Assembly: GCA_012719445.1 (NCBI GenBank)
Contig: JAAYAH010000015.1
Coordinates: 1 to 64,000, forward strand
Direction of reading: 5' to 3'
Origin: Actinomycetales bacterium
Lineage (GTDB): Bacteria > Actinomycetota > Actinomycetes > Actinomycetales > Kineosporiaceae
DNA length: 64,000 nt
Shown: positions 10,191 to 38,435 of the stretch, piece after piece
Position numbering within the stretch: the stretch's first letter is position 1
Layout of the letters: each line of letters starts with the position of its first letter
Position numbers and translations under genes: made by a program
The notes under the pieces: model-generated
Seen by the model: the letters and a program-made list of their open reading frames with translations, nothing else
Database searches by the model: none
What the model was told of the DNA's origin: nothing

Positions 10191-10215
10191 CCGTGAACCC
10201 GGCGGGGAGTGTCGA

Positions 10216-19798: not shown

Positions 19799-19831
19799 GA
19801 CCGACTCTCCGACATCGGCATCAACGGTTCG

Positions 19832-19868: not shown

Positions 19869-19870
19869 AC

Positions 19871-19886
19871 TGTGACATGGATCACA
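19871..19886. promoter_or_regulatory. Perfect CRP/GlxR consensus operator
   Basis: TGTGA-N6-TCACA matches the family consensus at all ten fixed positions. It lies about 290 bases upstream of the first gene of the synthase operon and overlaps a possible -35 element, so it could repress. Binding by a cAMP-type regulator is inferred from the motif only. Confidence 0.6.
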
Positions 19887-20173
19887 TGGCTTTGAGTATC
19901 CTGTGGACGGGTGGTCGGGCTGTACCGAATCCGGGGAGATGCCCGATCCCGGGATCCCTTTTTTCGGGGCGATAGGGGCGCGAATTACGCGATGGTGATT
20001 CGTTGTCGCCATTGCGGACGTCCGGGAGAAGTTCGTTACCGGTGGTCGTTCTGCTCTCGGGATGGGCGTTCCTCCACCTCGATAGGGTGATTCAACCGGA
20101 CATGCCGCCTGCAGGATCAGTCCTCGCACGGCCTCGGGCATGTCGATGGATCCTTTCTCGCTGGGGGAGACCT

Positions 20174-20344
20174 GTGAACCGTGTCGAGGTGTGCCTGATG
20201 CTGGCTGATGCCATGGAGCCGGCCCTGAGTGCGGAGGGGTCGAGGCTCCTGAGCCGACTCGTGCTCGGCTCCTTCGTCACCGTCGTCGGCGGGGCCGTGC
20301 TGTTCCGGCTGATCGTCCGGCTGAGCTCCAGGACCGGGCGGTAG
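20174..20344 (+). CDS. 56-residue single-pass membrane peptide
   Basis: GTG 20174 has GGGGAG about 6 bases upstream. The peptide has a short polar start (NRVEVCLMLADAMEPAL), a helix from about residue 27 to 45 (LVLGSFVTVVGGAVLFRLIV) and a basic end. It ends 7 bases before the synthase gene. I do not recognise a family. Position suggests a small partner of the synthase, as small membrane peptides accompany some GT2 synthases, but this is inference. Confidence 0.55.
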   Translation: MNRVEVCLMLADAMEPALSAEGSRLLSRLVLGSFVTVVGGAVLFRLIVRLSSRTGR

Positions 20345-20351
20345 CGACACC

Positions 20352-21665: not shown

Positions 21666-22963
21666 GTCTCCTCACGCTGGAACACCAGCTCGACGAAACC
21701 CACTTCAGCCTGGACCTGGTGGTCGTCGGTCTCGGCTACGTCGGGCTGCCGCTGGTGCAGGGTGCCGTCGAGGCGGGTCTCGCCGTGGCCGGCCTCGACC
21801 GCGACCCCCGGGTCGTCAACGGCCTCAACTCCGGGCGGTCGCACGTGGACGACCTGGACGACGAGGACGTGCGCGGGCTGCGGGAACGGGACTTCGTCGC
21901 CACCGCCGATCCCGCGATCCTCTCGCTGGCGGAACGCATCGTCGTCTGCGTGCCGACCCCGCTCTCCGCCGACGGCGGGCCCGACCTGACCGCCGTGCGC
22001 AGCGCGATCACCGCCGTGTCCGAGCACCTGCGGCCGGGGATGCTCGTGGTGCTGGAGTCGACGACCTACCCCGGGACGACGGACGAGGTGGTCCGGCCGC
22101 TGCTGGAGAGATCCGGCCTGGTCGCGGGGAGGGACTTCAACCTCGCGTTCTCGCCGGAGCGGATCGACCCCGGCAACCGGGAGTTCGGGCTGCGGAACAC
22201 GCCGAAGGTCGTCGGCGGGCACACCCCGGCCTGCGCCGACCGCGCGGCACGCCTGTACGGCAAGCTCGTCGACCACGTCGTCATCGCCAAGGGCACCCGC
22301 GAGGCCGAGATGGCGAAGCTGCTGGAGAACACCTACCGGCACGTCAACATCGCGCTGGTCAACGAGATGGCCAAGTTCTCCCACGAGCTCGGCATCGACC
22401 TGTGGGACGTCATCCGGTGCGCGCGGAGCAAGCCGTTCGGGTTCGAGGCCTTCTACCCCGGCCCAGGGGTCGGCGGGCACTGCATCCCCATCGACCCGAA
22501 CTACCTGAGCCACAGCGTCCGGTCCCGGCTCGGGTACCCGTTCCGGTTCGTCGAGCTCGCCCAGGAGATCAACGCGAGCATGCCCGCGTACGTGGTGCGT
22601 CGGGTCCAGGATCTGCTCAACCGGGAGCGCAAGTCGCTCAACGGTGCGCGGGTCCTGCTGCTCGGGGTGACCTACAAGGCCGACATCGCCGACCAGCGGG
22701 AGTCCCCGGCGCCCCAGGTGGCCCGGCTGATGCGCATCTCCGGCGCGGACGTCCACTTCCACGACCCCTACATCCGGGACTGGGACTACGGGTTCGGCCC
22801 GCAGCCGCGCGTGGACGACCTGGACGCGGTGCTCGCCGAGGCGGACATCACCGTGCTGCTGCAGGGGCACGAGCGCTACGTGACGGCCGACCTCCCGCGC
22901 GCAGCCCGGCTGCTGTTCGACACCAGGGGGATCATCTCCGACGCCGGGACGGCACGGCTGTGA
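21662..22963 (+). CDS. UDP-N-acetylhexosamine 6-dehydrogenase (WbpA/WecC-like)
   Basis: The protein has 433 residues. The NAD-binding start is VVVGLGYVGLPL; the catalytic cysteine is Cys274 in GVGGHCIPIDPNYL. That form is typical of UDP-GlcNAc/UDP-ManNAc dehydrogenases rather than UDP-glucose dehydrogenase, which carries a GGSCFPKD-type motif. It oxidises C6 of the sugar nucleotide to a carboxylate in two NAD-dependent steps. Its substrate probably feeds the synthase just upstream. Start and stop overlap both neighbours. A close paralogue lies at 30703-32076. Confidence 0.92.
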   Translation: MSLLTLEHQLDETHFSLDLVVVGLGYVGLPLVQGAVEAGLAVAGLDRDPRVVNGLNSGRSHVDDLDDEDVRGLRERDFVATADPAILSLAERIVVCVPTPLSADGGPDLTAVRSAITAVSEHLRPGMLVVLESTTYPGTTDEVVRPLLERSGLVAGRDFNLAFSPERIDPGNREFGLRNTPKVVGGHTPACADRAARLYGKLVDHVVIAKGTREAEMAKLLENTYRHVNIALVNEMAKFSHELGIDLWDVIRCARSKPFGFEAFYPGPGVGGHCIPIDPNYLSHSVRSRLGYPFRFVELAQEINASMPAYVVRRVQDLLNRERKSLNGARVLLLGVTYKADIADQRESPAPQVARLMRISGADVHFHDPYIRDWDYGFGPQPRVDDLDAVLAEADITVLLQGHERYVTADLPRAARLLFDTRGIISDAGTARL

Positions 22964-24594
22964 GGGCCGGGGGGGCGGGAGGGCTGCGCCGGGCGGGCGC
23001 GGTCGTGGCCCTGGCGGCCGTGGCCTGCGGGACCGGCGGGCTCGCGGCGTCCGCGGCCCCCGGCGAGGTGACCTCGGGGAGCACCCGCACCGCGACGGCA
23101 ACCGGCACGCGCACGGCAACCGGTACCGCGACGGCAACCGGAATGCGCACGGCAACCCGCACGGTCGCCGGCGCAGGCTCGGTGGCCGCGCGCCGGGCCG
23201 CAGCGGCCGAGACGTTCGCCGAGGGGACCACGGTCGTCTCGCTGACCTTCGACGACGGGTTCGCGAGTCAGTGGCGGGCGAAGAGGCTCCTGCGTCGGCA
23301 CGGGATGCACGCGACGTTCTACGTCAACAGCGAGCGGATCGGCACGGACAGGCGGCTGACCCTGGAGCAGCTCCGCGCGCTCCGGGCCGACGGCCACGAG
23401 ATCGCCGGGCACACCTCCAACCACACCCGGCTGATCGAGCTCGCCCCGGAGGAGCAGGTCCAGGAGATCTGCGACGACCGGGTGACGTTGAACCGGCTCG
23501 GGTTCGACGTGACGAACTTCGCCTACCCGTACGCCGCCTGGGATGCCACGGCCAGGAACGCCGTCGCGACCTGCGGCTACACCTCGGGCAGGACCATCGG
23601 GGACATCGGCAGGCGCAGCGCGACGTGCAAGCAGTGCAGCTACGCCGAGTCCATCCCGCCCAAGGACGCCTACGTGGTGCGGACCGGTCCCTCCGTCGTC
23701 CCGGCCACCTCCCTGTCGTGGATCAAGAAGGAGATCATGACGGCGGAGCGGCGCGGCGGCGGGTGGGTACCGCTGGTGTTCCACGAGGTCTGCGACGGCT
23801 GCAGTGCCATCGCCGTCTCCCCGGCCGTCCTCGCGAACCTGCTCGACTGGCTGGACCGCCGGGAGTCGCGGGGCGTCGTGGTCCGCAGCGTCCAGGAGGT
23901 GATCGGCGGTGAGGCGAAGCCGGTCGTCCCCGCGCCGGTGCAGGTCCCGAAGGACGGTGAGCTGGTCAACCCGTCCCTGGAGACCGCGTCCGGCGGGTCC
24001 GAGCCGCCCGTCATCGACCCCGGTCGGTGCTGGCAGCACGCGGGGTACGGGAAGAACACCGTGACCTGGTTGCGGTCGAAGGACGCCCACCACGGCGGCT
24101 GGGCCCAGACGCTGACGATGACCTCGCACACCGACGGCGACCGCAAGCTGATCGTGCGGCAGACGGACTGGTGCGCGCCGCGGGTGACGCCGGGCCGGTC
24201 CTACACCCTGGGCGCGTGGTACAAGTCCACGGCGCAGACCCGGATGCTGGTGTACTACCGGGTCCCGGGGAAGGGCTGGGTGTACTGGACGGCGTCGGCG
24301 CCGACCGGACCGGTGGCGGCGTGGACGCGGCACGTGTTCCGGACCCCGCCCATCCCGAGCGGTGCCACCCGGATCAGCTTCGGGTTGCAGCTCGCGACGA
24401 CGGGGACGCTCACCACCGACGACTACACCCTGAGCGGCAACTCCTCGTCCCTGCTGTACCGCTCGGGGTCGGTGGGAGGACTGAACCCGCTGCTGGTCAC
24501 GGCGCTGCCGGCGATCGTCATCGGGCTCGGCGTGCTCGTGCTGCTGATCCTCGTCCGGCGGCGGCGTCCGTCGACTCCGGCGCCGGCCGAGTAG
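22960..24594 (+). CDS. Secreted, C-terminally anchored polysaccharide deacetylase
   Basis: The protein has 544 residues. After an export signal comes a Thr/Arg/Ala repeat spacer (residues about 40-70), then a NodB (CE4) domain with TFDDG (Asp98-Asp99), the metal site HTSNH (His151/His155) and FAYPYA. Residues about 325-490 form a carbohydrate-binding-like beta-sandwich. A membrane helix near residues 505-530 followed by RRRRP anchors it. It would remove N-acetyl groups from the secreted polymer. The GTG start overlaps the dehydrogenase stop, so it belongs to the synthase operon. Confidence 0.9.
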   Translation: MRAGGAGGLRRAGAVVALAAVACGTGGLAASAAPGEVTSGSTRTATATGTRTATGTATATGMRTATRTVAGAGSVAARRAAAAETFAEGTTVVSLTFDDGFASQWRAKRLLRRHGMHATFYVNSERIGTDRRLTLEQLRALRADGHEIAGHTSNHTRLIELAPEEQVQEICDDRVTLNRLGFDVTNFAYPYAAWDATARNAVATCGYTSGRTIGDIGRRSATCKQCSYAESIPPKDAYVVRTGPSVVPATSLSWIKKEIMTAERRGGGWVPLVFHEVCDGCSAIAVSPAVLANLLDWLDRRESRGVVVRSVQEVIGGEAKPVVPAPVQVPKDGELVNPSLETASGGSEPPVIDPGRCWQHAGYGKNTVTWLRSKDAHHGGWAQTLTMTSHTDGDRKLIVRQTDWCAPRVTPGRSYTLGAWYKSTAQTRMLVYYRVPGKGWVYWTASAPTGPVAAWTRHVFRTPPIPSGATRISFGLQLATTGTLTTDDYTLSGNSSSLLYRSGSVGGLNPLLVTALPAIVIGLGVLVLLILVRRRRPSTPAPAE

Positions 24595-25003: not shown

Positions 25004-26167
25004 ATGAGCAGTGCCATCACTGTGAGCAATGCGGCGCGTCCGCGAATAGCCCCCGCGGATCTCCTGGGGCGGGGGCACGACGTGGTGTACGGGGCGCACG
25101 CACGTGCGCTCGTGCGGGGTCGCCGGATACTGGTGACCGGGGCGGGCGGTTCGATCGGGAGCGAGATCGTCCGGCAGCTCTCCACGCTCGCCCCGGAGCG
25201 GGTGTTCCTGCTCGACCACGACGAGTCCGCGCTGCACGCGCTGCAGCTCGAACTCGACGGCAACGGGCTGCTGGACAACGACCAGGTCATCCTCGCCGAC
25301 GTCCGGGACAGGTCGGTCATGCGACGGGTGATGCACTCGGTCGGCGCGGACATGGTGTTCCACGCCGCCGCGCACAAGCACCTTCCTCTCCTCGAGCGGT
25401 ACCCCGTCGAGGGGGTCAAGGCCAACGTCATGGGCACCTACAACGTCGTGACGGCCGCGGTGGAGGCAGGGGTGGAGCGGTTCATCAACATCTCCACCGA
25501 CAAGGCGGCACGACCGACGTCCGTCCTCGGCGCGACGAAGCGCCTCGCGGAGCTCCTGGTCAGCAGCTACGCGGGGCAGGGCACCAGGGTGGCCTCCGTC
25601 CGGTTCGGGAACGTCCTCGGGAGCAGGGGGTCGTTCCTGTGCAGTCTCGCGTACCAGATCGACCACCTGCGCCCGGTGACGATCACGGATCGGAGCGTGA
25701 CGCGGTTCTTCATGACCATTCCCGAGGCCGCAGGCCTGGTCATCGAGTCGGCCGTGATGGCCCGTGGCGGCGAGACCTACGTGCTGGACATGGGGGAACC
25801 GGTCCGGATCGTCGACCTCGTCGACCGGTACGTCGAGCTCACCGGATCCCTGACCCCGGAGGTCGTGTTCACCGGGTTGCGTGAGGGGGAGAAGCTGCAC
25901 GAGGAACTCCTCGACGCCGCGGAGGACAGGAGGCGGACCCTGCACCCCCGGATCTGGTCGGTGTCGCAGAAGAACGGGCGTGGGGACCAGGCGCGGTCCG
26001 GGGCGCACCGCCTGAACGAGATGATCCTCGACGGACGGTACGCCGAGGTCAGGCAGACGCTCTTCGACCTGGTACCGGGTGGTCGCGGTGCGCCGACGTG
26101 CCGGAGGTCCGCGTCGGTCGACCGGGACCCGGTCGCGCCCGAGGCCCTCGTCGCTAACGCGGGGTGA
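25004..26167 (+). CDS. FlaA1/CapD-like sugar-nucleotide 4,6-dehydratase (soluble form)
   Basis: The protein has 387 residues. The SDR Rossmann start is ILVTGAGGSIGSEIVRQL; INISTDKAARPTSVLGATKR is the family active-site region with Lys of the YxxxK-equivalent position. RFFMTIPEAAGLV and LREGEKLHEELL are further Polysacc_synt_2 signatures. The membrane domain of full-length CapD is absent, as in FlaA1/PseB-type enzymes. It would convert UDP-GlcNAc to a 4-keto-6-deoxy sugar and so start synthesis of an amino-deoxy sugar. GGAAGGAA lies upstream of the ATG. Confidence 0.9.
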   Translation: MSSAITVSNAARPRIAPADLLGRGHDVVYGAHARALVRGRRILVTGAGGSIGSEIVRQLSTLAPERVFLLDHDESALHALQLELDGNGLLDNDQVILADVRDRSVMRRVMHSVGADMVFHAAAHKHLPLLERYPVEGVKANVMGTYNVVTAAVEAGVERFINISTDKAARPTSVLGATKRLAELLVSSYAGQGTRVASVRFGNVLGSRGSFLCSLAYQIDHLRPVTITDRSVTRFFMTIPEAAGLVIESAVMARGGETYVLDMGEPVRIVDLVDRYVELTGSLTPEVVFTGLREGEKLHEELLDAAEDRRRTLHPRIWSVSQKNGRGDQARSGAHRLNEMILDGRYAEVRQTLFDLVPGGRGAPTCRRSASVDRDPVAPEALVANAG

Positions 26168-26173
26168 GCGACG

Positions 26174-27409
26174 GTGTTGTCCGGAGGATGGCCCGGAGTC
26201 ATCGCAGCCCTGCTGGTCGTGCCCGTCGTGCTGGCGCTCCTCGACCTGTCCGGAGGGCTGCGCGCGCGGCGGTTCCGGTGCGGCGTCCACAGGTGTGCCC
26301 CGGTCGACGACTTCGAGGTGCTGGTACCGATCTACGGGGCGATGACGTACCTGGAGAACGCGGAGTACCTGGCCCGGTACGGATCCCGCGTGATCCTGTG
26401 CACGACCACGACGGAGTCACGGACGTTCTACCGTGACCTGGCGGAGTGCGCGCAGCGGTACGGGTTCCGGGTGTTCCGGGCCCATGTCCCGCGGACGGCT
26501 GCCGGTACCGGGAAGCGGGCGACGTCCGGAACGGTGCGGGACCGGATCATCCGGGACGCGCACGCAGAGGTGAGGGCGACATGGGTCGTCTGCCTCGACG
26601 CGGACACGACGACGACCCGTCCCCTGGACGAGCTCGTGGGGACCATGGCGACCCGTGGGCTGGACCTGGCCTCGATACGCCTGGTCCCGTCGAACCTGAC
26701 CACCGGGCTCGCCAGGATCCAGGCCCACGAGTACCGCATGGCGATGATGCTGCGGCGCATTCTGCCGTGGCTCGTGTCCGGCGCCTGCCATGCGGCGCGA
26801 GCCGAGGTGCACAGGGCGGTGATGAACCGGCACTCGCTCTTCTTCCAGGGCAACGACGTCGAGCTCGGCGTTCTCGCCGAGGCCCTCGGATACCACGTCG
26901 GGCACGTTCCCTTCGAGGTCCCGACAACGGTTCCGGAGACCCTTCGCCCGTGGTTCAGGCAGCGGCTCGCCTGGGCCGGGGGTGAGGTCCGGCTCTTCGT
27001 CATGAATCCGCAGCTCGCGCTGAAGCATCCCATCTTCTGGACGTACGGCTGCATCATCGCCATCGCGGCCTTCCCGTTCCGATGGAACGCTCTCGCGCAC
27101 GCCGGTCTCGTGATCGGCGTGGTCCTGGCGGCCTACACGGGGCTCTGCCTGTTCCTGCACCGCGGGCACTGGGACCGGTGGCTGCTCGTGCTGCCGCTGT
27201 ACGCCGCGCTGTCCAGCCTGGTACTCACCCCGCTGGGGCTGATCTGGTACGTCCGGATGGCGGTGTCCGACCGCAACCTCGGACTGATCCGGGCACGGGC
27301 GGGTCGACGTCGTCCGGCGACCGCGGACGACGGGGGGGACGAGGCGCTGCGCCCTCGCGCGGGAGCGCCGTCACGATCGGGAGCGGTCGACTGCCCGCTC
27401 TCCGCGTGA
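26174..27409 (+). CDS. Divergent GT2-like membrane polysaccharide synthase, copy 1
   Basis: The protein has 411 residues: one N-terminal helix, a GT-A-like domain, three or four C-terminal helices. It keeps a DADTTTT metal site and GNDVELG, but the first nucleotide-binding motif reads VILCTTT instead of the usual VVDDGS, and the QxxRW position reads QRLAW (263-267) with Ala for Arg. It is clearly homologous to the protein at 32235. It starts at GTG 26174, 6 bases after the dehydratase, and its stop lies inside an 18-bp tandem repeat. Likely role: polymerising and exporting a glycan; donor unknown. Confidence 0.78.
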   Translation: MLSGGWPGVIAALLVVPVVLALLDLSGGLRARRFRCGVHRCAPVDDFEVLVPIYGAMTYLENAEYLARYGSRVILCTTTTESRTFYRDLAECAQRYGFRVFRAHVPRTAAGTGKRATSGTVRDRIIRDAHAEVRATWVVCLDADTTTTRPLDELVGTMATRGLDLASIRLVPSNLTTGLARIQAHEYRMAMMLRRILPWLVSGACHAARAEVHRAVMNRHSLFFQGNDVELGVLAEALGYHVGHVPFEVPTTVPETLRPWFRQRLAWAGGEVRLFVMNPQLALKHPIFWTYGCIIAIAAFPFRWNALAHAGLVIGVVLAAYTGLCLFLHRGHWDRWLLVLPLYAALSSLVLTPLGLIWYVRMAVSDRNLGLIRARAGRRRPATADDGGDEALRPRAGAPSRSGAVDCPLSA

Positions 27410-27459
27410 GCACCGCGCTTCTGGTGAGCACCGCGCTTCTGGTGAGCACCGCGCTCCTC
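27406..27459 (+). repeat. Three 18-bp tandem repeats spanning the stop codon of the synthase gene
   Basis: The units are 27406-27423, 27424-27441 and 27442-27459, each beginning gtgagcaccgcgct, with a partial fourth at 27460. The TGA of the synthase is inside the first unit and every unit also offers a GTGA. Confidence 0.88.
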
Positions 27460-27526
27460 GTGAGCGCCACGCCGGATGCCGAAACAGCCTGGATCAGGGT
27501 GACAGGTCGATCAGGGAGAACGCCTC

Positions 27527-28552
27527 ATGGTCACGACGCGCAGGGTCGCCGTGGTGCGGGTCGTCATGGTGGTGCTGCTCGCCGTCCTGCCGGCGGCGCT
27601 CGTGTTCCCGTCGCCTCTCCTGCGCTCCGTCGCAAGCGAGGCGACGGGTGACCTGGCGTACCGAGTGCCCCCCACGGTGTCGGTCCTGCCCGAGGACGCG
27701 GACTGGGCCGCGCGTGCCTCGCCGATCCTGCGGGAGACGAGGACGCCCAGGGTCCTTCCGGCCGGGGGGTTCACCGGACGTCGGGTGGTGAGCCCGGCGG
27801 GGGAGCGCGCCCTGTGGGTCTGGGCGACGGGCGACCCGGCGTCCCTGCTGAGGCTCGCCTCCAGGAACGGTGTCACGACGCTCTACGTCTGGGTCTCGCC
27901 GGGATTCTCCAGGAGCCCCGCGACGATGACGCGGCTCACCGAGCTGTGCCGACTCGCCGCGGCGAGACGGCTCGCCGTCGACGCCCTCGGCGGCGATCCC
28001 TCGTGGGCCGTGCATCCCCAGCGGGCCGGTCGGTGGGCCGTGGAGGTGGCGAAGACCCGGCGGTTCCGGCGCCTGCACCTCGACGTCGAACCGCATGCCC
28101 TGGCCTCCTGGTCCGGGCACACCGGTGTGTTGTCGGCAGGGTTGATATCCGCGGTGGTGCACGCCAGGGCATCCGGGATGCCGGTGGACGTGGACATCCC
28201 CTACTGGTACTGGACGGTGCTGACGGCGTCCGGCGAGCCGCTCGACATCGGGATCATGCGTCGCGCGGACGCGATAACCGTCATGGCGTACCAGGACTCG
28301 TGGCGCAAGGTCGTCGCCGTGTCCCGGCCGGAGCTGTCCCGCGCGGCGATGCGGGGGGTCCGGGTGATCGTGGGTGTCAACATCCGGAGACCCAAGGGCG
28401 ATGCACCCCCGAGCAGCTACTGGGGGCGCTCGGCAGGGGAGATCGGCAGGGAGATCAGGATGATCGGTGCCGAACTGTCGCGGTCAACGGTCTTCGGCGG
28501 CATCGCGATCCACGATGCGGAGAGCCTGGCGCGGCTCGGGAGGCTCGGGTGA
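27527..28552 (+). CDS. Secreted TIM-barrel-like putative glycosidase, family member 1
   Basis: The protein has 341 residues. The signal peptide is residues 1-28 (RVVMVVLLAVLPAALVF). The mature part starts near LWVWATGDP, and its pattern of alternating strands (TTLYVWVSP, LAVDALGG, LHLDVEPHAL, VDIPYWYW, ITVMAYQDS, VIVGVNI) fits a TIM barrel. LDVEPH (Asp186, Glu188) and MAY (253-255) sit where GH18 enzymes carry DxE and MxY. I know no named family for it. Two homologues lie at 33989 and 35028. ATG 27527 follows GGGAGA. Next to a synthase gene, it probably trims or releases the nascent polymer. Confidence 0.72.
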   Translation: MVTTRRVAVVRVVMVVLLAVLPAALVFPSPLLRSVASEATGDLAYRVPPTVSVLPEDADWAARASPILRETRTPRVLPAGGFTGRRVVSPAGERALWVWATGDPASLLRLASRNGVTTLYVWVSPGFSRSPATMTRLTELCRLAAARRLAVDALGGDPSWAVHPQRAGRWAVEVAKTRRFRRLHLDVEPHALASWSGHTGVLSAGLISAVVHARASGMPVDVDIPYWYWTVLTASGEPLDIGIMRRADAITVMAYQDSWRKVVAVSRPELSRAAMRGVRVIVGVNIRRPKGDAPPSSYWGRSAGEIGREIRMIGAELSRSTVFGGIAIHDAESLARLGRLG

Positions 28553-28603
28553 CGGCCGGTCTCGTGGGTCCTCGTCAACAGCGGTGAATAGTCTCTTGGA
28601 GGC

Positions 28604-30100
28604 ATGCAGGTGAGGATTCGGAAGGTTCGGCTGCCCAGGCGGGACCGGCTGTGGGCCGGGACGACGGTGACCCGGGTGCTGTGGGGGCTCGACCTCCCCG
28701 CACCGGACGAGGTCCGGGCCCGGATCGCCGACGCCCAGCGGACCCACCCCGGCAGCCGCTTCGGCTGCCGGGTGGACGGGGCGGGGCGCCTGTATCCCGT
28801 GCCTGCCGAGTGCCGGGAGGAGTTCCTCGCGAGCGTCGTGGCGACGTCGCCGGAGGAGTCCCCCGGGGTGGTGACGTCACCAGGAGAGCCGCCCGGGGGA
28901 GCGACGCCGTCGGGGGAGCTGCCCGGGGAGCGGTCGGCAGCCGAGGCCGGGGTGCCGTTCACCGTGACGATGGGACCGTCGTGGGTGGTGCTCGCCTACC
29001 CGCACATGGTGTTCGACGGCCGGACGGCGCTCGAGTTCCTGGCCGGGCTGCTGGGACCCGATCCGGACCGGCTGTCCCGGCTGATCGGTCGCCGCGAGTG
29101 CGTCCTCCCCGTGCTCCAGGCCGGGGTGAACACCTACCTGCGGCATCCCGGTGCCGTGCTCCGGCTGGCGAGGGAGCCCCGCCCCCGACCGGTGACGGCC
29201 CCGGACGGCACCACCGCACCGGGAGCGGGGGCTGCACCGGGAGCGGGGGCTGCACCGGGAGCGGGGGCTGCGACGCGGGAGTACTCCGCACCGGTGCCGG
29301 GAGCACCGCGTGCACCGGCCTGCCTGTACCGGGTGTCGCACCCGGACCTGCTGCCGGAGTTGCGGTCGTGGCGCGATCGCCATGCTCCCGGGGTCTCGGT
29401 GGCGTCGATCCTGTTCTCCCGGTTCGCCACGGCGTTCGGGGAGGCGTTCGGAGCGTCGGGCCACCCGGCACGGGACGGGGTCGTGGTGCTCTTCGACGCC
29501 CGTCGGTACCTCCCGTCGGGGAGGCACGTGACCGGCAACTTTTCCGCCGCCGTCTACGTGCGGCCGCGGGACCTGCGGGACCCCGTCGCGATGGGCGAGG
29601 TGCTGCGGTCGGTCGCGGCGTCGGGGCGACCGCTGGCCGCGATGGCGCTGGCGTGCCTCACCCCGACGGCGCCCTCCGCACCCACCGCCACCGGGCCGAC
29701 GTCCTCCGCCGCGCCTACCCCCACCGGGCCGGGAGTAGCGGTCGACCTGCCGTCGCCGCTGCTGGCCTTCTCGCACGTCGGCCGGGCGGACGCTCTCGCC
29801 GGGCTTCCGTGGTCCGGGGGGCCGGAGGACATGCGCATCGCGGTGTCGGCCACCCCGCCCGGGGCCGAAGGGCTGACCGTCAACCTGCTCGAAGGCGGCG
29901 GCCGTCTGCACGTGTCGGCGTCGTTCCACGACGCGGTGTTCCCGCCGACCGTGGTGGCCGGGGCCATCGCCGCCGTGCTCGGCGAGGAGAGCCCCGCATC
30001 TCAGTCAGCAGGTGGTCGTCCAGTCGGCGGTCGGCGGATCGTCGGGAGTCATGCCCGCCGTGGACCAGGGTCTCCGCACCCCTCGGCCGGCTCGTCGTGA
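28604..30100 (+). CDS. Condensation-domain-like acyltransferase
   Basis: The protein has 498 residues. YPHMVFDGRTALEFL gives HxxxDG (His134, Asp138), the catalytic motif of CoA- or carrier-dependent acyltransferases (condensation, PapA and WS/DGAT-type). TGNFSAAVYV resembles the second-half core. No membrane helix or signal is seen, so it acts in the cytoplasm. Three Pro/Ala/Gly/Ser inserts, one an 18-bp DNA repeat, interrupt the fold. It may acylate a sugar or lipid-linked intermediate. ATG 28604 is 51 bases after the glycosidase gene. The exact acceptor is unknown. Confidence 0.7.
   Translation: MQVRIRKVRLPRRDRLWAGTTVTRVLWGLDLPAPDEVRARIADAQRTHPGSRFGCRVDGAGRLYPVPAECREEFLASVVATSPEESPGVVTSPGEPPGGATPSGELPGERSAAEAGVPFTVTMGPSWVVLAYPHMVFDGRTALEFLAGLLGPDPDRLSRLIGRRECVLPVLQAGVNTYLRHPGAVLRLAREPRPRPVTAPDGTTAPGAGAAPGAGAAPGAGAATREYSAPVPGAPRAPACLYRVSHPDLLPELRSWRDRHAPGVSVASILFSRFATAFGEAFGASGHPARDGVVVLFDARRYLPSGRHVTGNFSAAVYVRPRDLRDPVAMGEVLRSVAASGRPLAAMALACLTPTAPSAPTATGPTSSAAPTPTGPGVAVDLPSPLLAFSHVGRADALAGLPWSGGPEDMRIAVSATPPGAEGLTVNLLEGGGRLHVSASFHDAVFPPTVVAGAIAAVLGEESPASQSAGGRPVGGRRIVGSHARRGPGSPHPSAGSS
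29218..29271 (+). repeat. Three identical 18-bp repeats inside the acyltransferase gene
   Basis: The units 29218-29235, 29236-29253 and 29254-29271 begin accgggagcggggg and encode a Pro-Gly-Ala-Gly-Ala-Ala linker. They are in frame, so copy number can vary without breaking the gene. Confidence 0.88.
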
Positions 30101-30702
30101 CCCGGTTCATCTGCTGACGGGCGGCGACGAGTTCGCTGTCGAGTCCCAGCCCGTCGGCCCGACGGTGACCCACCCATGGGACAACGCCGCGGGTGCACGC
30201 TGTGTCGTTCCTCCGTGTGGTGTGTAGGGGTTCCCTGCAACGGGTGCACCCGAGGAGGTGCTGGGTGGAGAGGCCGGAATTTCTCGGTCCGGAGATGCCG
30301 TTCGGCGACGTATCGTTCTGTCTCTCCCCTCTGCGGCGAGTCGGGAGAGAATGCAGTACGTCAAGGCACGACCCGTGTCAAGTTCTCGCCCGGGCGTGGT
30401 CGTGACCCGGGGGAGGACTGCCTGAACGGACGACCGAGGACCAACCGTTCACCGTATGTTGGAAATTGACTGCGGTCTGGAGTGGTGAAATCGTTGTCTC
30501 GGGAGGGGTGCTCGCCCGGTGCGTAACCGTGTGTGGCCGAGCCCACGGTGGGGACGTATCAGCCACGAGAATCAGCTCAGAGCATCGGATGGGCAGGTAA
30601 CTGCTCGAGGACTGCCGCTGGCCCATGGCGAGGATGTCGATGCTGCGCGGTCGGCTCGAGGCTGATGTATTGACTCGGCAATCAACCCCGGGGGGGACAG
30701 AT
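30101..30702. other. Intergenic region where base composition changes
   Basis: This 602-base gap leads from very GC-rich sequence to the less GC-rich 30.7-36.1 kb stretch. TTGACT at 30466-30471 is a possible -35, but the matching -10 (AATCGT, 17-base spacing) is poor. I found no gene in it; short frames at 30176-30469 have no family features. Confidence 0.4.
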
Positions 30703-32076
30703 ATGTCTGTGCGTTCAGTCGAGGACATTGCGCCGGACCTCAGCCTGTCGCAAGCCAGGATGACGGAGGCCGGTCCGCTGACGGCGGTCGGCCCAGAAAC
30801 GTCGTTGACGGTGAAGTCCGCCGTAGACCTCGTGGTGATCGGGTTGGGCTACGTCGGCCTGCCGTTGGCATCGGGGGCAGTCGACGCGGGGATGTCCGTG
30901 ATGGGACTGGATGTCAGCGAAAGGGTTGTCCGCGGTCTCAACTCGGGCCGTTCCCACGTCGACGACCTATCGCACGATCGAATCGTCGAGATGCTGGGGG
31001 GAGGATTTCGCGCCACGACGGAGAGTCAGGTCATCCGCAGTGCGAACGCGATCGTCATCTGCGTGCCGACGCCGCTCGGTGACGACGGTGGTCCGAATCT
31101 CACCGCTGTTCGTGAAGCCGCCTGGATGGTGGCAAAGAATCTGGCCCCCGGCGCGCTGGTCGTCCTCGAGTCGACGACGTACCCGGGGACGACGGATGAG
31201 GTCGTGAGACCGATTCTCGAGACCTCTGGGATGTCCGCGGGACGCGATTTCAGCCTGGCGTTCTCGCCCGAGCGGATCGATCCCGGTAACTCGCGGTTCG
31301 GGTTGGCGAACACCCCGAAGGTCGTGGGCGGGTATACCCAGGGGTGTGCGGCGAGGGCGGCCGAGTTCTATCAGCGTCTCGTCGAAAGGGTCGTCCTCGC
31401 GAAGGGCACGCGTGAGGCCGAGATGGCAAAACTCCTCGAAAACACCTATCGGCACGTGAACATCGCGCTCGTCAACGAGATGTCGCGCTTCTGTCAGGAT
31501 CTCGGTATTGACATCTGGAATGTGATCGACTGTGCCTCGAGTAAGCCGTTCGGATTCCAGCCGTTCTACCCTGGTCCTGGGGTCGGTGGGCACTGCATTC
31601 CGGTCGACCCCAATTATCTGAGTTACAGCGTCCGGACCCGTCTGGGTTACCCCTTCCGGTTCGTCGAGTTGGCACAGGAGATCAACTCGGGAGTTCCGCG
31701 ATACGTCATGCGGCGGATCCAGGACCTCCTGAACAGCAGGAAGAAGTCGCTGAGCACGTCATCGGTGCTGCTGTTGGGAGTCACCTACAAAGAGAACATC
31801 GCGGATCAGAGGGAGTCTCCGGCGAAACCGTTGGCCCGCCTGCTCGCCGGATCCGGGGCCGCGGTCAGCTATCACGATCCCTATGTCCCCGTATGGAACT
31901 ACGGTGCCGGGGCGATCAATTGTGTTCCCGATCTCGATGCTGCTCTCCAGGCGTGTGATCTGGCGGTTCTGCTCCAGGCACATGAACAGTACGTGTCTTC
32001 CGACGGTGTGCGTGGGGCTGCACTGGTCTTCGACACCAGGCGAGTGACGAACGGTCGCAACGTCAGTCATCTGTGA
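30703..32076 (+). CDS. UDP-N-acetylhexosamine 6-dehydrogenase, second copy
   Basis: The protein has 457 residues. The NAD-binding motif VVIGLGYVGLPL follows a 45-residue N-terminal extension; the catalytic cysteine is Cys298 in GVGGHCIPVDPNYL. It aligns along its length with the protein at 21662 (shared TKVVGG-type and KGTREAEMAKLLENTYRHVN segments), yet its codons use many more A/T third positions. ATG 30703 lies just after a GGGGGGGACAG site; an in-frame ATG at 30625 lacks one. It heads a module with the synthase at 32235 and would supply a UDP-uronate amino sugar. Confidence 0.9.
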   Translation: MSVRSVEDIAPDLSLSQARMTEAGPLTAVGPETSLTVKSAVDLVVIGLGYVGLPLASGAVDAGMSVMGLDVSERVVRGLNSGRSHVDDLSHDRIVEMLGGGFRATTESQVIRSANAIVICVPTPLGDDGGPNLTAVREAAWMVAKNLAPGALVVLESTTYPGTTDEVVRPILETSGMSAGRDFSLAFSPERIDPGNSRFGLANTPKVVGGYTQGCAARAAEFYQRLVERVVLAKGTREAEMAKLLENTYRHVNIALVNEMSRFCQDLGIDIWNVIDCASSKPFGFQPFYPGPGVGGHCIPVDPNYLSYSVRTRLGYPFRFVELAQEINSGVPRYVMRRIQDLLNSRKKSLSTSSVLLLGVTYKENIADQRESPAKPLARLLAGSGAAVSYHDPYVPVWNYGAGAINCVPDLDAALQACDLAVLLQAHEQYVSSDGVRGAALVFDTRRVTNGRNVSHL

Positions 32077-32234
32077 ACGACGAGAGACGTGACGATCCGG
32101 TCCGATGTGTCGTATCGGCTCCGTGAGACGACGGAGAGCATCACGACGTTCTCGAGAAGACTTCACCGAGGGACCGAGACTCTCCGAGCGTGAGATCAGT
32201 CAACCCTCGGTCGGATTAGCGCGGAGGGCGCACG

Positions 32235-33833
32235 GTGGTTGAACCAGCAGATCAGGCGGGTAACAGGCTGTTGGCGGCGGACGAGGTGAGTGTCGACACG
32301 TATCCCGACGACACCATCGACATACGTGGTCACCAGGTCGGGGCGGACGCGACGGCACCGGGTCGGGAACGCGAATATCGTTCCGACCACACGCGCGCGT
32401 CACGACGGAGGGCGCGGAGCCGATGGCGGCCGATCCTGCAGGTGGCTGTTCCGATCGGAACACTGGTCATGCTGGCATCCTTCATGATCGCCCTGGGAAG
32501 CTTCGTGATCGTTCCACCCTGGGCGGACCCACGACACCCCCTGGTGTTCATCGGCGTTCTCGTGCCCGTCGGGTTGGCGTTGATCGATGTCCTGATTCAG
32601 GGAAGAGCCTTTCTGTGCGCCTGTCGGGAGATCGAGGAGGACGGGCCTCGCAGGGAAGACTTCATGGTGCTCATACCGATATTCGGTGACATCAAGTACC
32701 TCAAGAACATCTCCTTTCTGAGTCGCTACTCGAACAGGGTGGTCCTGTGCACGACCACTTGGGTCGGCTCCGCCTTCGACAAGGAACTGGAGAGGGTGGC
32801 GGAGCTTCACGGATTCAACATCGTGCGGACCCACGTCCTTCCGAAGATGATCCAGTCGGGAGCGAACCCGAACCCTTGGCGATTGTTCACCAACGCACTC
32901 GAGGGCGATGTGAGTACGCGGGACAAGGTCATCAGGGACTCCATCGAGATGGTGGGCTCCAACTACTGTGTCTTCTTGGACGGTGACACCGTCACGGATA
33001 TGGACTTGGGCAAGGTCATCGGACTGTTCGCCGACGAAGGACTCGACGTCGCATCGGTTCGTGTCCTCGCCTCTCGTCAGGAGACTCTCGCAGAGAAGCT
33101 CCAGGCGGTGGAGTACGAGTTGGCGATGGATGCCCGGAAGGTGTATCCGTGGCTGACCTCGGGGGCCTGCATCATTGCGCGAATGGACGCCATCAGCACG
33201 ATCATGCGCAGTCACTCGCTGTTCTTCTCCGGCGGGGACATCGAGGTGGGGGTTCTCGCAAAGAAGCTCCATCTGAAGGTGGGGCACATTCCCTGTAATT
33301 TCTACACGGACGTCCCTGAGACCTTGAAGGCGTGGTTCAAGCAGAGGGTCAACTGGTGCGCAGGTGGGTTCCGTCACGCCGTGGTCAACGCGTGGTCCTA
33401 CAAGTGGCGGCATCCGCTTCACTTCCTCTACGCAACCTGTGTGGTGTATGCGATGGCGCCCCTGCGGTGGCACGAGGTCATCACCCGGCCAGAGATCATC
33501 CCGTTCGTCATCGTGCTCTACTGGAGTCTTATATTCATTATTCGCGGCGGTCGGTGGCGTGGGCACTACTTCCTCTTCCCGATCTACGCTCTCGTCCAGG
33601 TGATGGTGCTCGTGCCGTTGGGAATGGTGAGGTACTGTAAGATGGCTGTTCGAGCAAAGAATGTCGGCATCATCAGACTGAGAAATCGGAAGGCTGCCGA
33701 TGAGGGCGGCGAGTCGGGTATCGAGCAGCTGTTCGGCACGGATGCCCAGGTGCCGGTGCTCAACCTCACCGGACAGGAGTCGGACCCGAGGGACAGCGCA
33801 GCCGGCAGAGCCTGGGCGCAATCGGTGCGGTGA
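32235..33833 (+). CDS. Divergent GT2-like membrane polysaccharide synthase, copy 2
   Basis: The protein has 532 residues. A 70-residue polar N-terminus precedes two helices (about 73-120), then a GT-A-like domain and three C-terminal helices. As in copy 1, the first motif is VVLCTTT rather than DDGS, and the QxxRW position is QRVNW (370-374) with Asn for Arg; DGDT and GGDIEVG are kept. It also has a 20-residue insert after HVLPKMIQ absent from copy 1. The GTG start has GGAGGG 6 bases upstream. Role inferred: synthase for the module with the dehydrogenase upstream and the glycosidase-like gene downstream. Confidence 0.8.
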   Translation: MVEPADQAGNRLLAADEVSVDTYPDDTIDIRGHQVGADATAPGREREYRSDHTRASRRRARSRWRPILQVAVPIGTLVMLASFMIALGSFVIVPPWADPRHPLVFIGVLVPVGLALIDVLIQGRAFLCACREIEEDGPRREDFMVLIPIFGDIKYLKNISFLSRYSNRVVLCTTTWVGSAFDKELERVAELHGFNIVRTHVLPKMIQSGANPNPWRLFTNALEGDVSTRDKVIRDSIEMVGSNYCVFLDGDTVTDMDLGKVIGLFADEGLDVASVRVLASRQETLAEKLQAVEYELAMDARKVYPWLTSGACIIARMDAISTIMRSHSLFFSGGDIEVGVLAKKLHLKVGHIPCNFYTDVPETLKAWFKQRVNWCAGGFRHAVVNAWSYKWRHPLHFLYATCVVYAMAPLRWHEVITRPEIIPFVIVLYWSLIFIIRGGRWRGHYFLFPIYALVQVMVLVPLGMVRYCKMAVRAKNVGIIRLRNRKAADEGGESGIEQLFGTDAQVPVLNLTGQESDPRDSAAGRAWAQSVR

Positions 33834-33988
33834 GAGGCCTCGCGGTGCGGGCCGGCCGGGCACGGGAGAGACCGCCGCACAGCAGCGCGTGGGCGGTGGG
33901 AGGGGAGGGACCATCCCGGTGGAGTCCCGACACGGGGCGCAGGCGCTCTGCTGCCCACCCGAGTCCTTCGTCGTAGGGGACCGGTGAC

Positions 33989-35071
33989 ATGTTCCCCGGG
34001 GTACGAGCCAAGAACAACCTGCTGTTGGTTGGCGCTCTTGCTGCGGCGAGCCTGACTCTGACGGCAGACCAGGGGGACCCGTCGGAGGCGGACGTGCCTG
34101 ACATCGCACTGCCCCAGGGAATGCATGCGAGTGTCTACGAGTGGCGAGACCTGGCCGAGCTGGACGCGCAGCAGTCGGTGATCCGGCTCCGGGAGATGAA
34201 ACGTCGAGGATATGACGAGATCTTCATCGACGTCAGCAGGTACATGGATCTCATCGAGATGCCAGAGCCTCGACGTCGGACAGAGCTGACGCACTACCGG
34301 GACCAGCTGTCACGTTATATCGGCAGAGTGCGGGCCGTGGGTTTCTCGGTGCAGTTGCTTGCGGGGTTTCCGTCTCTGGCTCATCCTGACGTCTCCTATC
34401 TCGCACCCTCGATTCTGTCTCTCGCCGGCGAGCTGAACGCCGGTGCGACGGCACCGGGCCCTGTCGTCACCGGCGTCCAGTTCGACGTGGAGCCGTATCA
34501 GCTGCCGGAGTACGGGCGGTCTCCCGAGACAGTGGTGCGCTGGTACCTCGAGTTCGTCCGGACCGTGATCGAGGCACGAGGCGATCGAGCAACGGGGGAC
34601 CACGCCACCCTGGAGGTCGGCTTCGCCGTGCCGGTCTGGTTCGCCTCGTCGAGTCCGCCGTTGAGCTGGGACGGGGACGATCGTCATCCTCTGGGGCATC
34701 TGATGGCGTACCTCGGATCCCACGAGTCCACCTATCTCTCCGTCATGGCGTACCGCAACGAACTCTCCGGGGACGACGGCATCCTGGCGAAGGTGGATGA
34801 GTTCCTCGGTGAGGTGGACCCCGCATCGGGCCGCGTGAAGCTGACCGTGGCCCAGGAGGTGGGCAACGTGGAACCGTCGAAGATCACTCACTACGGCCTC
34901 GGGAATGCTCGACTCAGCAAGAACCTGGTCGGCATCTATGAGGCCTTCGGCGGCAGACGCGACTTCCGTGGAGTCGCCGTGAACGACTTCGACGGTCTGG
35001 AGTCCCTGGACGATCAGCCCGACTGTGTCAAGACATCACCCGGCGGTGACCTGAGTCGGCAGGTGTGCTGA
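33989..35071 (+). CDS. Secreted TIM-barrel-like putative glycosidase, family member 2
   Basis: The protein has 360 residues with a signal-like start (KNNLLLVGALAAASLTL). QFDVEPYQLPEYG places Asp166 and Glu168 as in the homologues, and VMAYRNE begins at residue 252. FIDVSRYMD and LEVGFAVPVW fit other barrel strands. It is the most divergent of the three related proteins, with a longer loop between the DxE and MAY motifs. ATG 33989 follows AGGGGA. Its last 44 bases overlap the end of the opposite-strand homologue, an unusual tail-to-tail arrangement. Confidence 0.72.
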   Translation: MFPGVRAKNNLLLVGALAAASLTLTADQGDPSEADVPDIALPQGMHASVYEWRDLAELDAQQSVIRLREMKRRGYDEIFIDVSRYMDLIEMPEPRRRTELTHYRDQLSRYIGRVRAVGFSVQLLAGFPSLAHPDVSYLAPSILSLAGELNAGATAPGPVVTGVQFDVEPYQLPEYGRSPETVVRWYLEFVRTVIEARGDRATGDHATLEVGFAVPVWFASSSPPLSWDGDDRHPLGHLMAYLGSHESTYLSVMAYRNELSGDDGILAKVDEFLGEVDPASGRVKLTVAQEVGNVEPSKITHYGLGNARLSKNLVGIYEAFGGRRDFRGVAVNDFDGLESLDDQPDCVKTSPGGDLSRQVC

Positions 35072-36074
35072 CCGCTCGGGGCCTCGTACTCAGGGTCTGG
35101 AGCCGTGCGAGGTACTCGGCGTCGTGGAGGGCGACGCCTCCGAATCCCGGCATGGTAGTGCCGGTGCTGGTGATCCTCGCCAGATCGGTGAAGACGGAGA
35201 CAGCGGTGGCCCCCCAGAGGGTGCTGGTCGGTTCCGTGGCGGAGGCCGGCCGGATGTTCACTCCGATCACTGCCCGTTTTCCGAGGGCGGCCGCGTGCCG
35301 CAGCTCCACGGCGGACACGGCGACAATTCTGCTCCAGGTGTTCTGATAGGCCATGATCGTCACCGAGTCCGCACGACGCATGACGGCGATGTCAAGGGTG
35401 TCCTTGGACAGGGTCGGTGTCTTCCAGTACCAGTGAGGTATGTCGACGTCGACAGGGAGACCGACCGACCTGACTCGCTGGACAGCCTGGACGAGACCGC
35501 TCGACAGGCGTTTCTGTCGCGTCGTCCAGTCGCCGAGCGTATAGGGCTCGATATCGAGGTGAATGCGTTCGAAGAAGCCCAGATCCCTGACCTCTTTTGC
35601 CCATGACTCGGCTCGCGAGGGATATGCGGCCCATGAGGGGCTGCCGCCAAGGGCATCCAGGTGGATTCCTTTGCTCCGGGCCCTCCGGGAGAGCTCTGCG
35701 AAGCGTGACATGAGTACGCGGTCGTTCCGCGAGCCCAGGGGGACCGACACGAGAAGGCGGTTGAATCCATGCCGGGAGGCGAGGGTGACGAGGGGTTCTG
35801 GTGTCCATCCACGCCAGACCCACAGCGACCGGACGGCGGTGGCCGGTACGGCAGGAGAAGTCGATGTCAGGCGCAGGTCACGATGTGACACGAGAGACGC
35901 CGGCGGCTGTTCCTGTGAGAATTGACCACCGTTCCCCGCTGATGACGGATAGGTGCTCGTCTGGGACGGGGAGCTGGCACTCAGAGACATGAGGGTGAGC
36001 GTGATGAGAGCGACGCCGGCGCCCACGCCGGGCAAAGAGCTTCTTCTGTGGTGTGTTCTCGCCGGGCATCGCAT
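35028..36074 (-). CDS. Secreted TIM-barrel-like putative glycosidase, family member 3
   Basis: The protein has 348 residues. ATG 36074 has a perfect GGAGGT 6 bases upstream. A signal peptide (about residues 15-35) and Ser/Thr/Gln-rich linker precede the barrel. SLWVWRGWTPEPLVTLASRHG aligns with member 1; HLDIEPYTL holds Asp174/Glu176 and IMAYQNTW begins with Met241, giving the same 67-residue spacing as member 1. VDVDIPHWYWK is nearly identical to member 1. It is encoded opposite to the rest of the module and overlaps member 2 at the 3-prime end. Confidence 0.75.
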   Translation of the reverse strand: MRCPARTHHRRSSLPGVGAGVALITLTLMSLSASSPSQTSTYPSSAGNGGQFSQEQPPASLVSHRDLRLTSTSPAVPATAVRSLWVWRGWTPEPLVTLASRHGFNRLLVSVPLGSRNDRVLMSRFAELSRRARSKGIHLDALGGSPSWAAYPSRAESWAKEVRDLGFFERIHLDIEPYTLGDWTTRQKRLSSGLVQAVQRVRSVGLPVDVDIPHWYWKTPTLSKDTLDIAVMRRADSVTIMAYQNTWSRIVAVSAVELRHAAALGKRAVIGVNIRPASATEPTSTLWGATAVSVFTDLARITSTGTTMPGFGGVALHDAEYLARLQTLSTRPRAVSTPADSGHRRVMS

Positions 36075-37401: not shown

Positions 37402-37434
37402 GTGTTCGTTCACCCCCCGGGAAAGGGCCACCGG

Positions 37435-37953
37435 ATGGCAGCGACGCGTCGACTGTTCGCCCTCGCGCGGCTGGCACTCCCCCTCGTCGTCGTCGGCGGG
37501 GCAGCGCTGTCCCTGGCCGGGGAGGGGACGGACCGGGCGATCCCTGTGGGCGCCCAGACCCTGGGGCAGCACGGCCAGCCCGTTGCGAGTAGCGGGAACG
37601 CCCCGCACAGTGATCTCGTCGTCAGCGGTTCGGTCCAGGACCTCTGGCCAGGGGTGGCCGGCTCCCTCAACCTGACCGTCACCAACGTCGGCCACCGGCC
37701 GATCCGGCTGCTGACGCTGGGTGCCGTCGCCGAGGGTCCGCACGGCTGCACCGCCTCGGAGAATCTGCGGATCAGCGCGTACGACGCGTCCGTGCCGGGA
37801 GCCGGGCAGTACCTGATCAAGAGTGGTAGCAGCGTGGTGGTCCCCCTGCAGGTCACCCTGCTCGACCTCCCCGAGAACCAGAGGTTCTGCGAGGGAGCGA
37901 CGTTCCGGCTGACCTACCACGGCTCCGCCGAGGGTATGCGGGGCAGGCCGTGA
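37435..37953 (+). CDS. Small exported Ig-like protein, paralogue 2
   Basis: The protein has 172 residues with an export signal (LFALARLALPLVVVGGAAL). The mature part repeats the layout of the first gene: LWPGVAGSL, then TVTNVGHRPI, a first cysteine in HGCTAS, and a closing FCEGATFRLTYHG. ATG 37435 follows GGGAAAGGG. The stop overlaps the next GTG (GTGA). The SipW-like AxAxW motif of its neighbours is missing here, so it may be processed by the general signal peptidase. Confidence 0.78.
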   Translation: MAATRRLFALARLALPLVVVGGAALSLAGEGTDRAIPVGAQTLGQHGQPVASSGNAPHSDLVVSGSVQDLWPGVAGSLNLTVTNVGHRPIRLLTLGAVAEGPHGCTASENLRISAYDASVPGAGQYLIKSGSSVVVPLQVTLLDLPENQRFCEGATFRLTYHGSAEGMRGRP

Positions 37954-38435
37954 GGCCGCCGGGTCGGTCGGGTCGCCGGGGCGACTGGGGACCGAGGCGG
38001 GCCGTCACCGCGGCAGGGATCGGGCTGCTCGCCGTCACCGTCGGGGGAGCCGCCCTCGCCCTCTGGACGAGCTCGGGCACCGGGACGGGCTCGGGGACCA
38101 CGGCATCGCTCACCCTGACCGGGGAGACGACCACCTCCGGGCTCCTGGCTCCCGGCGCGACGTCCGTCGTCCACCTCACCCTGACGAACCCCAACCCGGG
38201 AGAGATCACGATCGTCGCGCTCACCGGGGGGACGGCGCGGATCGCGGAGTCGGGCAGTGGTTCCTGCGATCCGGCCGCGGTCACGTTCGTGCCCCGGGCC
38301 GACCTCACCGTGCCCGTTCCGGCCGGCGGCTCCGTCGTGGTGGACGGGGTGGTGTCCATGAGCACCGAGGCCGCCGACGGCTGTCAGGGGGCCACGTTCA
38401 CCGTGCCGGTGACCGCAAGGGCGGAGACGTCATGA
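37950..38435 (+). CDS. Small exported Ig-like protein, paralogue 3
   Basis: The protein has 161 residues. A basic start (RSGRRGDWGPRRAV) leads into GLLAVTVGGAALALWTSSGTG, matching the AxAxW(T/S)xxG pattern of the first gene. The mature part contains LAPGATSVVHLTLTNPNPG, a cysteine in GSCDPA and the closing DGCQGATFTVPV. GTG 37950 overlaps the previous stop and ATGA overlaps the next start, so translation of the three downstream genes is coupled. Confidence 0.78.
   Translation: MRPPGRSGRRGDWGPRRAVTAAGIGLLAVTVGGAALALWTSSGTGTGSGTTASLTLTGETTTSGLLAPGATSVVHLTLTNPNPGEITIVALTGGTARIAESGSGSCDPAAVTFVPRADLTVPVPAGGSVVVDGVVSMSTEAADGCQGATFTVPVTARAETS

What the first reader, a model, noticed from the sequence alone, without database searches (positions are those of the whole stretch)
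25004..36074. Two modules pairing a divergent GT2 synthase with secreted GH18-like putative glycosidases
Module 1 has a CapD-like dehydratase, divergent synthase, putative glycosidase and acyltransferase. Module 2 has a UDP-HexNAc dehydrogenase, divergent synthase and two putative glycosidases. Synthases and glycosidase-like proteins are each paralogous between modules. Sugar-nucleotide enzyme, membrane synthase and secreted hydrolase together recall synthase-dependent exopolysaccharide systems (Pel, PNAG), yet none of the proteins carries the hallmarks of a named system. This is my first candidate for an undescribed system.
Basis: partly seen in the sequence, partly recalled or inferred. Interest (0 to 1): 0.72.

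Follow-up and report, generated by a model that had tools for sequence, protein, structure and literature searches.

The report
Divergent glycan synthases with secreted hydrolases
Two neighbouring gene sets in an actinobacterium each pair a sugar-nucleotide enzyme with an unusual membrane enzyme that probably builds a sugar chain and with secreted enzymes that probably trim it, and the same gene pairs recur in distant microbes, which points to a so far undescribed surface-polysaccharide system.

Summary
The genes are real. The two synthases are paralogues (37% identity), two of the glycosidase-like proteins are 47% identical, and the third is a distant relative. The synthases form a divergent GT2 family with a QRxAW motif in place of QxxRW; their predicted fold is closest to hyaluronan synthase. 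A scan of GTDB found 32 further loci. In 21 of them the CapD-like dehydratase gene directly precedes the synthase gene, often with overlapping stop and start codons. Module 2 (UDP-sugar dehydrogenase, synthase, hydrolase) recurs in the same order in a Parcubacterium, with 50% synthase identity. The hydrolases match no Pfam or NCBIfam family. They form a TIM-barrel family with an invariant DxE, nearest to GH18 and PgaB-like hydrolases by fold, with one solved relative (10yv). Their pairing with synthases recurs but is partial: most CapD-synthase loci lack a hydrolase, and most hydrolase genes have no synthase beside them, though one hydrolase clade is synthase-linked in all six members. Best reading: a synthase-dependent glycan system whose core is donor enzyme plus synthase, with the hydrolase as accessory. 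Polymer, hydrolase activity and processivity are untested. New variant of a known kind.

The parts
25004..26167 (+). Module 1: soluble CapD/WlaL-like SDR, probable UDP-HexNAc 4,6-dehydratase without the N-terminal membrane domain
   Evidence: PF02719 E 6e-97; best solved relative WlaL/PglF 1e-62 with the STDKA.RPT..LGATKR segment retained; directly precedes the synthase in 21 of 32 related loci
26174..27409 (+). Module 1: divergent GT2 membrane synthase (GT2a); DxD at 142/144, GNDxE, QRLAW instead of QxxRW
   Evidence: PF13632 E 4e-18; motifs in A7; model pLDDT 83, best fold matches hyaluronan synthases Z 24.8 over 340 residues
27527..28552 (+). Module 1: secreted TIM-barrel glycosidase-like protein (GHa), D186-x-E188
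   Evidence: A6 alignment; AlphaFold TIM barrel, core pLDDT above 90; Foldseek best GH18 chitinases, PgaB also listed; N-terminal hydrophobic segment 9-27
28604..30100 (+). Module 1: possible HxxxDG-type acyltransferase, function unproven
   Evidence: no Pfam or NCBIfam hit; HMVFDG motif read from the sequence; not conserved in related loci
30625..32076 (+). Module 2: UDP-HexNAc-type 6-dehydrogenase (WecC/Cap5O/WbpA group)
   Evidence: TIGR03026 2e-125, UDP-ManNAc dehydrogenase models next; PDB 4r16 and Cap5O best; GVGGHCIPVDP active-site cysteine present; same position in Parcubacterial L046
32235..33833 (+). Module 2: divergent GT2 membrane synthase (GT2b), DGD, GGDIE, QRVNW; true start may lie downstream of the GTG used
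   Evidence: 37% to GT2a; 50% to the Parcubacterial homologue in L046 with the same neighbours; forms a 100/100 clade with it
33989..35071 (+). Module 2: secreted TIM-barrel glycosidase-like protein (GHc), D166-x-E168
   Evidence: homologue directly after the synthase in L046 (E 3e-29); in the clade whose six members are all beside GT2 synthases
35028..36074 (-). Convergent glycosidase-like protein (GHb), paralogue of GHa, D174-x-E176
   Evidence: 47% to GHa; sister of GHa with 95/92 support
30625..36074 (.). Low-GC stretch carrying module 2, probably horizontally acquired
   Evidence: 62.8% GC against 71.7%; lowest 5.45-kb stretch of the window; nearest whole-module relative is in a Parcubacterium

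Best explanation
Each module is a compact synthase-dependent glycan system. A cytosolic enzyme makes the special donor (CapD-like: a 6-deoxy-4-keto-HexNAc nucleotide; dehydrogenase: a UDP-HexNAc-uronate). A hyaluronan-synthase-like membrane GT2 uses that donor, perhaps with UDP-HexNAc, to polymerise and extrude a chain. A secreted TIM-barrel hydrolase with a GH18-like DxE then cuts or releases the chain outside the cell, as PelA or PgaB do. Shown here: the genes, the conserved donor-enzyme plus synthase pairs, the predicted folds, the intact candidate catalytic motifs and the recurrence. Inferred: donor identity, processivity, polymer chemistry, hydrolysis of that polymer, and the cellular role.
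For: CapD-synthase adjacency in 21 of 32 loci over many actinobacterial families plus a Methanosarcina MAG, often with a -3 (ATGA-type) overlap. CapD and synthase distances correlate (r 0.78; 0 of 10,000 permutations; shared ancestry not removed). None of the 32 loci has a detectable homologue of the window's Wzx or ordinary glycosyltransferases in the flank held (up to 10 kb), so the pair seems to work without a Wzx/Wzy cluster (limited sensitivity: a GT2 was found by Pfam in L038). Synthase fold matches hyaluronan synthases, Z 24.8, 340 aligned. Dehydrogenase-synthase-hydrolase order repeated in Parcubacterium L046. Hydrolase beside a synthase of this family in L042, L046 and L032, and beside other GT2 synthase types in L074 (twice), L077 and L124. 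5 of 32 hydrolase loci within 3 kb of a GT2 against 0.46 expected, P about 1e-4. Synthase linkage clusters on the hydrolase tree: 3 changes, 0 of 500 shuffles as low.
Against: 21 of 24 synthase genomes have no hydrolase of this family at all. Hydrolase relatives also stand alone, by ribosomal or flagellar genes, so their substrate could be peptidoglycan; Cwp19, a cell-wall enzyme, tops the VIA list. PcManGT scores almost as high as hyaluronan synthase (Z 24.1), so processivity is not settled. Nine Actinomycetaceae loci have the synthase without an adjacent CapD. In the window both modules lie in a larger glycan island. A 4-keto-6-deoxy sugar is an unusual direct donor and would normally need a further enzyme. 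The 0.46 expectation uses one genome's GT2 density.
Confidence: 0.55

Rival explanations
1. The GT2 proteins are single-addition or short-oligosaccharide transferases (NodC-, ArnC- or PcManGT-like) that feed a lipid-linked or Wzx/Wzy pathway, here the neighbouring Wzx-containing island, and the hydrolases are unrelated neighbours.
For: PcManGT Z 24.1, tied with the hyaluronan synthases; few membrane helices, one at the N-terminus and about three at the C-terminus, as in NodC; window 8131-16565 holds GT2, GT4 and Wzx-like genes.
Against: The CapD-synthase pair stands alone in the related loci, without detectable Wzx or window-type transferases; interface helix with QRxAW and alignment of the C-terminal membrane part to hyaluronan and cellulose synthases.
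Confidence: 0.25
2. The TIM-barrel proteins are peptidoglycan or general cell-wall hydrolases, and their position beside the synthases reflects shared cell-envelope regulation, not a shared substrate.
For: Family members in f35 genomes sit beside flagellar rod genes, others near ribosomal genes; Cwp19 is the top VIA match, though TIM barrels score alike.
Against: One clade of six hydrolases is synthase-linked in every member; linkage occurs with three different synthase types, and in 24 synthase genomes the hydrolase occurs only next to the synthase.
Confidence: 0.2
3. The hydrolase-like proteins are inactive glycan-binding barrels that guide or anchor the polymer.
For: Some GH18-fold proteins are lectin-like (established knowledge, e.g. 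concanavalin B); GHa and GHb have GVN where most relatives have GQE or GxE.
Against: D-x-E on strand 4 is invariant in all 16 aligned members and aligns with the DxE of a GH18 chitinase.
Confidence: 0.1

Closest known systems
Hyaluronan synthase systems (HasAB; Chlorella virus and Xenopus HAS)
   Same: Single membrane GT2 with the matching fold (Z 24.8 over 340 residues); a UDP-sugar dehydrogenase gene beside the synthase in module 2
   Different: About 12-16% identity in structural alignments, QRxAW or QRVNW in place of QxxRW, fewer membrane helices, HexNAc-type rather than glucose-type dehydrogenase, added secreted hydrolases
PNAG (PgaC/IcaA with PgaB/IcaB) and Pel
   Same: Layout of membrane synthase plus secreted TIM-barrel hydrolase; PgaB hydrolase domain is among the Foldseek matches
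   Different: Synthase far below the PgaC_IcaA cut-off; no deacetylase fused to the hydrolase, no PgaD, PelD-G or outer-membrane parts in the modules
GH18 chitinases and chitinase-like proteins
   Same: TIM barrel, DxE on strand 4, M-A/S-Y on strand 6 aligned to GH18 5jh8
   Different: No Pfam GH18 hit at E 0.1 for any of 16 members; the full DxxDxDxE is not conserved
PDB 10yv, 'Putative GH97 from Cellulomonas fimi'
   Same: Same sequence family as the hydrolases, E 2e-41 over the whole domain, LDVEPW at the active-site strand
   Different: I found no paper on it; activity unknown to me; link to a synthase not examined
WlaL/PglF, Cap8E and FlaA1 UDP-GlcNAc 4,6-dehydratases
   Same: CapD-like protein matches WlaL at 1e-62 with the active-site segment kept
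   Different: Met of WlaL is Leu here, no membrane domain, paired with a polymer-type synthase rather than an aminotransferase

Membership tests
Synthase-dependent exopolysaccharide systems (as a kind) | Membrane-embedded polymerising GT2 synthase | tested here: inconclusive
   Fold and motifs fit; PcManGT ties, polymerisation not assayable here
Synthase-dependent exopolysaccharide systems (as a kind) | Operon with donor-sugar and/or extracellular modification enzymes beside the synthase | tested here: met
   CapD-synthase in 21 of 32 loci, dehydrogenase-synthase-hydrolase in the window and L046
PNAG (pga/ica) | PgaC/IcaA-type synthase above family cut-off | tested here: not met
   16.9 and 21.4 bits against a cut-off of 422
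PNAG (pga/ica) | PgaB/IcaB deacetylase within the module | tested here: not met
   No deacetylase domain in P0003, P0007 or P0008; a separate one lies upstream, within 22402-24594
Hyaluronan synthase | HAS-like fold | tested here: met
   Z 24.8, rmsd 3.3, 340 aligned
Hyaluronan synthase | QxxRW motif | tested here: not met
   QRxAW or QRVNW
Hyaluronan synthase | Makes GlcA-GlcNAc polymer | not testable with these tools
   needs biochemistry
GH18 | Recognised by GH18 profiles | tested here: not met
   no hit for any of 16 members at E 0.1
GH18 | TIM barrel with DxE at strand 4 | tested here: met
   model and alignment; resemblance of fold only
10yv sequence family | Full-length profile homology | tested here: met
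   E 1.9e-41, profile positions 36-305 of 307
Pel (PelA/PelF) | PelF-type GT4 synthase with PelD-G partners | tested here: not met
   the synthases are GT2, PF13632; no Pel partners among the module ORFs

The most novel reading that the evidence does not exclude
A previously undescribed family of synthase-dependent glycans spread over Actinomycetota, Patescibacteria and possibly an archaeon, built from unusual 6-deoxy- or uronic HexNAc donors by a hyaluronan-synthase-like enzyme family with a changed QRxAW motif, and in some lineages processed by a new glycoside hydrolase family.
Probability: 0.45. Interest if true: 0.72.

Novelty: new variant of a known kind. Interest (0 to 1): 0.56.

Why it matters
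Only five synthase-dependent exopolysaccharides were counted in the 2020 operon survey (PMC7112194). A minimal two-gene unit, dehydratase plus synthase, that recurs across many actinobacterial genera offers a small and testable route to a new surface polymer. The hydrolase family is absent from Pfam and NCBIfam and is linked to at least three kinds of GT2 synthase, so it gives a handle for finding and degrading such polymers. Why exopolysaccharide systems carry hydrolases is described as still unclear (PMC9894940).

Tried and rejected
A first GTDB scan with the single protein P0006 found nothing; plasmids also gave nothing. Fifty-seven other genomes of the same family and order lack the synthase. 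A named PNAG, Pel, cellulose or hyaluronan system: rejected on cut-offs and parts. A universal synthase-hydrolase pair: rejected, because 21 of 24 synthase genomes have no hydrolase of this family and most hydrolase loci lack a synthase. Further dehydrogenase-synthase-hydrolase modules in Patescibacteria: only L046 among 362 genomes, plus one weak match not followed. VIA ranking to name one GH family: not decisive, since TIM barrels score alike; GH1 and GH5 rows there are not evidence of membership. Literature on 10yv, on the actinobacterial pair and on REC-HEAT-GT2 operons: nothing found.

Full report
Observation. Synthases P0002 and P0006 are 37% identical, and glycosidase-like P0003 and P0008 are 47% identical. 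P0007 is a remote member of the same family: it has no convincing pairwise match to P0003 or P0008, but its Parcubacterial relative matches all three and the joint profile and tree hold them together. P0001 is a CapD/WlaL-type SDR and P0005 a UDP-HexNAc-type dehydrogenase. The acyltransferase label of P0004 has no database support.

Synthase family. Pfam gives PF13632 as the main hit. One scan of the GTDB species genomes with a four-sequence alignment found 32 loci in Streptomyces, Actinoplanes, Asanoa, Actinopolymorpha, Arthrobacter, Sediminihabitans, Actinomyces, several MAGs, a Methanosarcina MAG and a Parcubacterium. The family is rare: it was seen in 3 of 395 genomes of the window's class, the window's own included. 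Across 30 sequences the DxD, the G-x-D-x-E and a W..RQR.AW block are conserved; the arginine of QxxRW is replaced, usually by Ala. The AlphaFold model (pLDDT 83, pTM 0.83) is closest to hyaluronan synthases by Foldseek (E 9e-12) and VIA (Z 24.8, 340 residues), with the mannosyltransferase PcManGT nearly equal. The fold is that of a membrane polymer synthase, but a single-addition enzyme is not excluded.

The core pair. In 21 of the 32 loci the CapD-like gene directly precedes the synthase, mostly with a few bases of gap or an overlap. Nine Actinomycetaceae loci, L032 and L046 lack it; an A. oris genome has a more distant CapD elsewhere, and three other genomes tested have none at the cut-off used. 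CapD and synthase distance matrices correlate at r 0.78 (common descent contributes). Homologues of the window's other transferases and Wzx were not detected near these pairs; a few neighbours checked with Pfam are unrelated metabolism or regulation, a sulfatase in L029 and one GT2 in L038.

Module 2. The only relative of the whole set is Parcubacterial L046: dehydrogenase (with a likely frameshift in the MAG at a poly-A run), synthase (50% identity) and hydrolase in the same order, with short gaps. The two synthases form a 100/100 clade apart from the CapD-linked ones. Module 2 has 62.8% GC in a 71.7% GC window. Horizontal acquisition is the likely reading; the direction is unknown.

Hydrolase family. 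No member has a Pfam or NCBIfam glycosidase hit above the usual thresholds. The family profile finds one solved relative, 10yv, titled 'Putative GH97 from Cellulomonas fimi' (E 1.9e-41), and weakly a GH18 chitinase whose DxE aligns with the family's invariant DxE. I could not check why the entry is titled GH97. The model is a clean TIM barrel; Foldseek ranks GH18 chitinases first and lists the PgaB hydrolase domain; VIA cannot separate TIM-barrel families.

Is the pairing real? Three tests. (i) In 24 genomes chosen for the synthase, the hydrolase occurs in 3, each time next to the synthase (L042, L032, L046). (ii) In searches by hydrolase alone, 5 of 32 loci have a GT2 synthase within 3 kb (L032, L074 twice, L077, L124), where about 0.46 would be expected from the window genome's GT2 density (a rough yardstick). 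These include canonical synthases next to the hydrolase in L074 and a REC-HEAT-GT2 gene set in L077 and L124. (iii) On the hydrolase tree the synthase-linked members form two supported clades plus L124: six of six in the clade of P0007, three of three in the clade of P0003 and P0008; 3 changes against a shuffled mean of 7.6, 0 of 500 as low. Some members were found through the synthase, so this test is not fully independent. The rest of the family stands alone or by flagellar rod genes. The hydrolase is thus an accessory recruited by several synthase systems, and may act on another HexNAc polymer elsewhere.

Context. The window around the modules is a glycan island: two GT2, a PF01943 flippase, two GT4, a GH26, a NodC-like GT2 and a polysaccharide deacetylase. 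A broadly similar mix (GT2, GH26, polysaccharide-transport protein) is described for the wps-1 cluster of Actinoplanes missouriensis (PMC13390465), but no CapD or dehydratase is mentioned there.

Verdict. The conserved unit is the donor enzyme plus synthase; the hydrolase is optional. I file it as a new variant of synthase-dependent glycan biosynthesis, with the polymer, the donor and the hydrolase activity all still to be shown.

Noticed in passing
window 8131-16565: GT2, GT2, PF01943 flippase-like, GT4 and GT4 genes, a Wzx/Wzy-like glycan cluster upstream of the finding.
   Followed up: partly
window 17996-24594: GH26-domain protein, NodC-like GT2 (20352-21665) and a NodB/PdaA-type polysaccharide deacetylase with C-terminal hydrophobic segment, possibly a further synthase-deacetylase set.
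   Followed up: partly
L124 7715-11797 and L077 840-5310: Response-regulator receiver protein, HEAT-repeat-like membrane protein and GT2 synthase in a row, with the hydrolase family member beside them, in two distant actinobacterial genomes.
   Followed up: partly
L112, L114, L117, L122: Members of the hydrolase family lie next to flagellar rod genes (FlgB, FlgC, FliE-like by eye) and a small peptidase-like protein, hinting at a cell-wall role.
   Followed up: no
L027: CapD-synthase pair in a MAG labelled Methanosarcina; transfer to an archaeon or a binning error.
   Followed up: no
window 37402-40324: Three consecutive secreted-looking ORFs without Pfam hits; N-termini resemble SipW-dependent matrix proteins by eye.
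   Followed up: no
L068, L070, L110: Hydrolase family members next to ribosomal-protein and secY-region genes in three genomes.
   Followed up: no
L046 8702-8930: Apparent frameshift at a poly-A run in the Parcubacterial dehydrogenase gene, probably a sequencing error in the MAG.
   Followed up: partly
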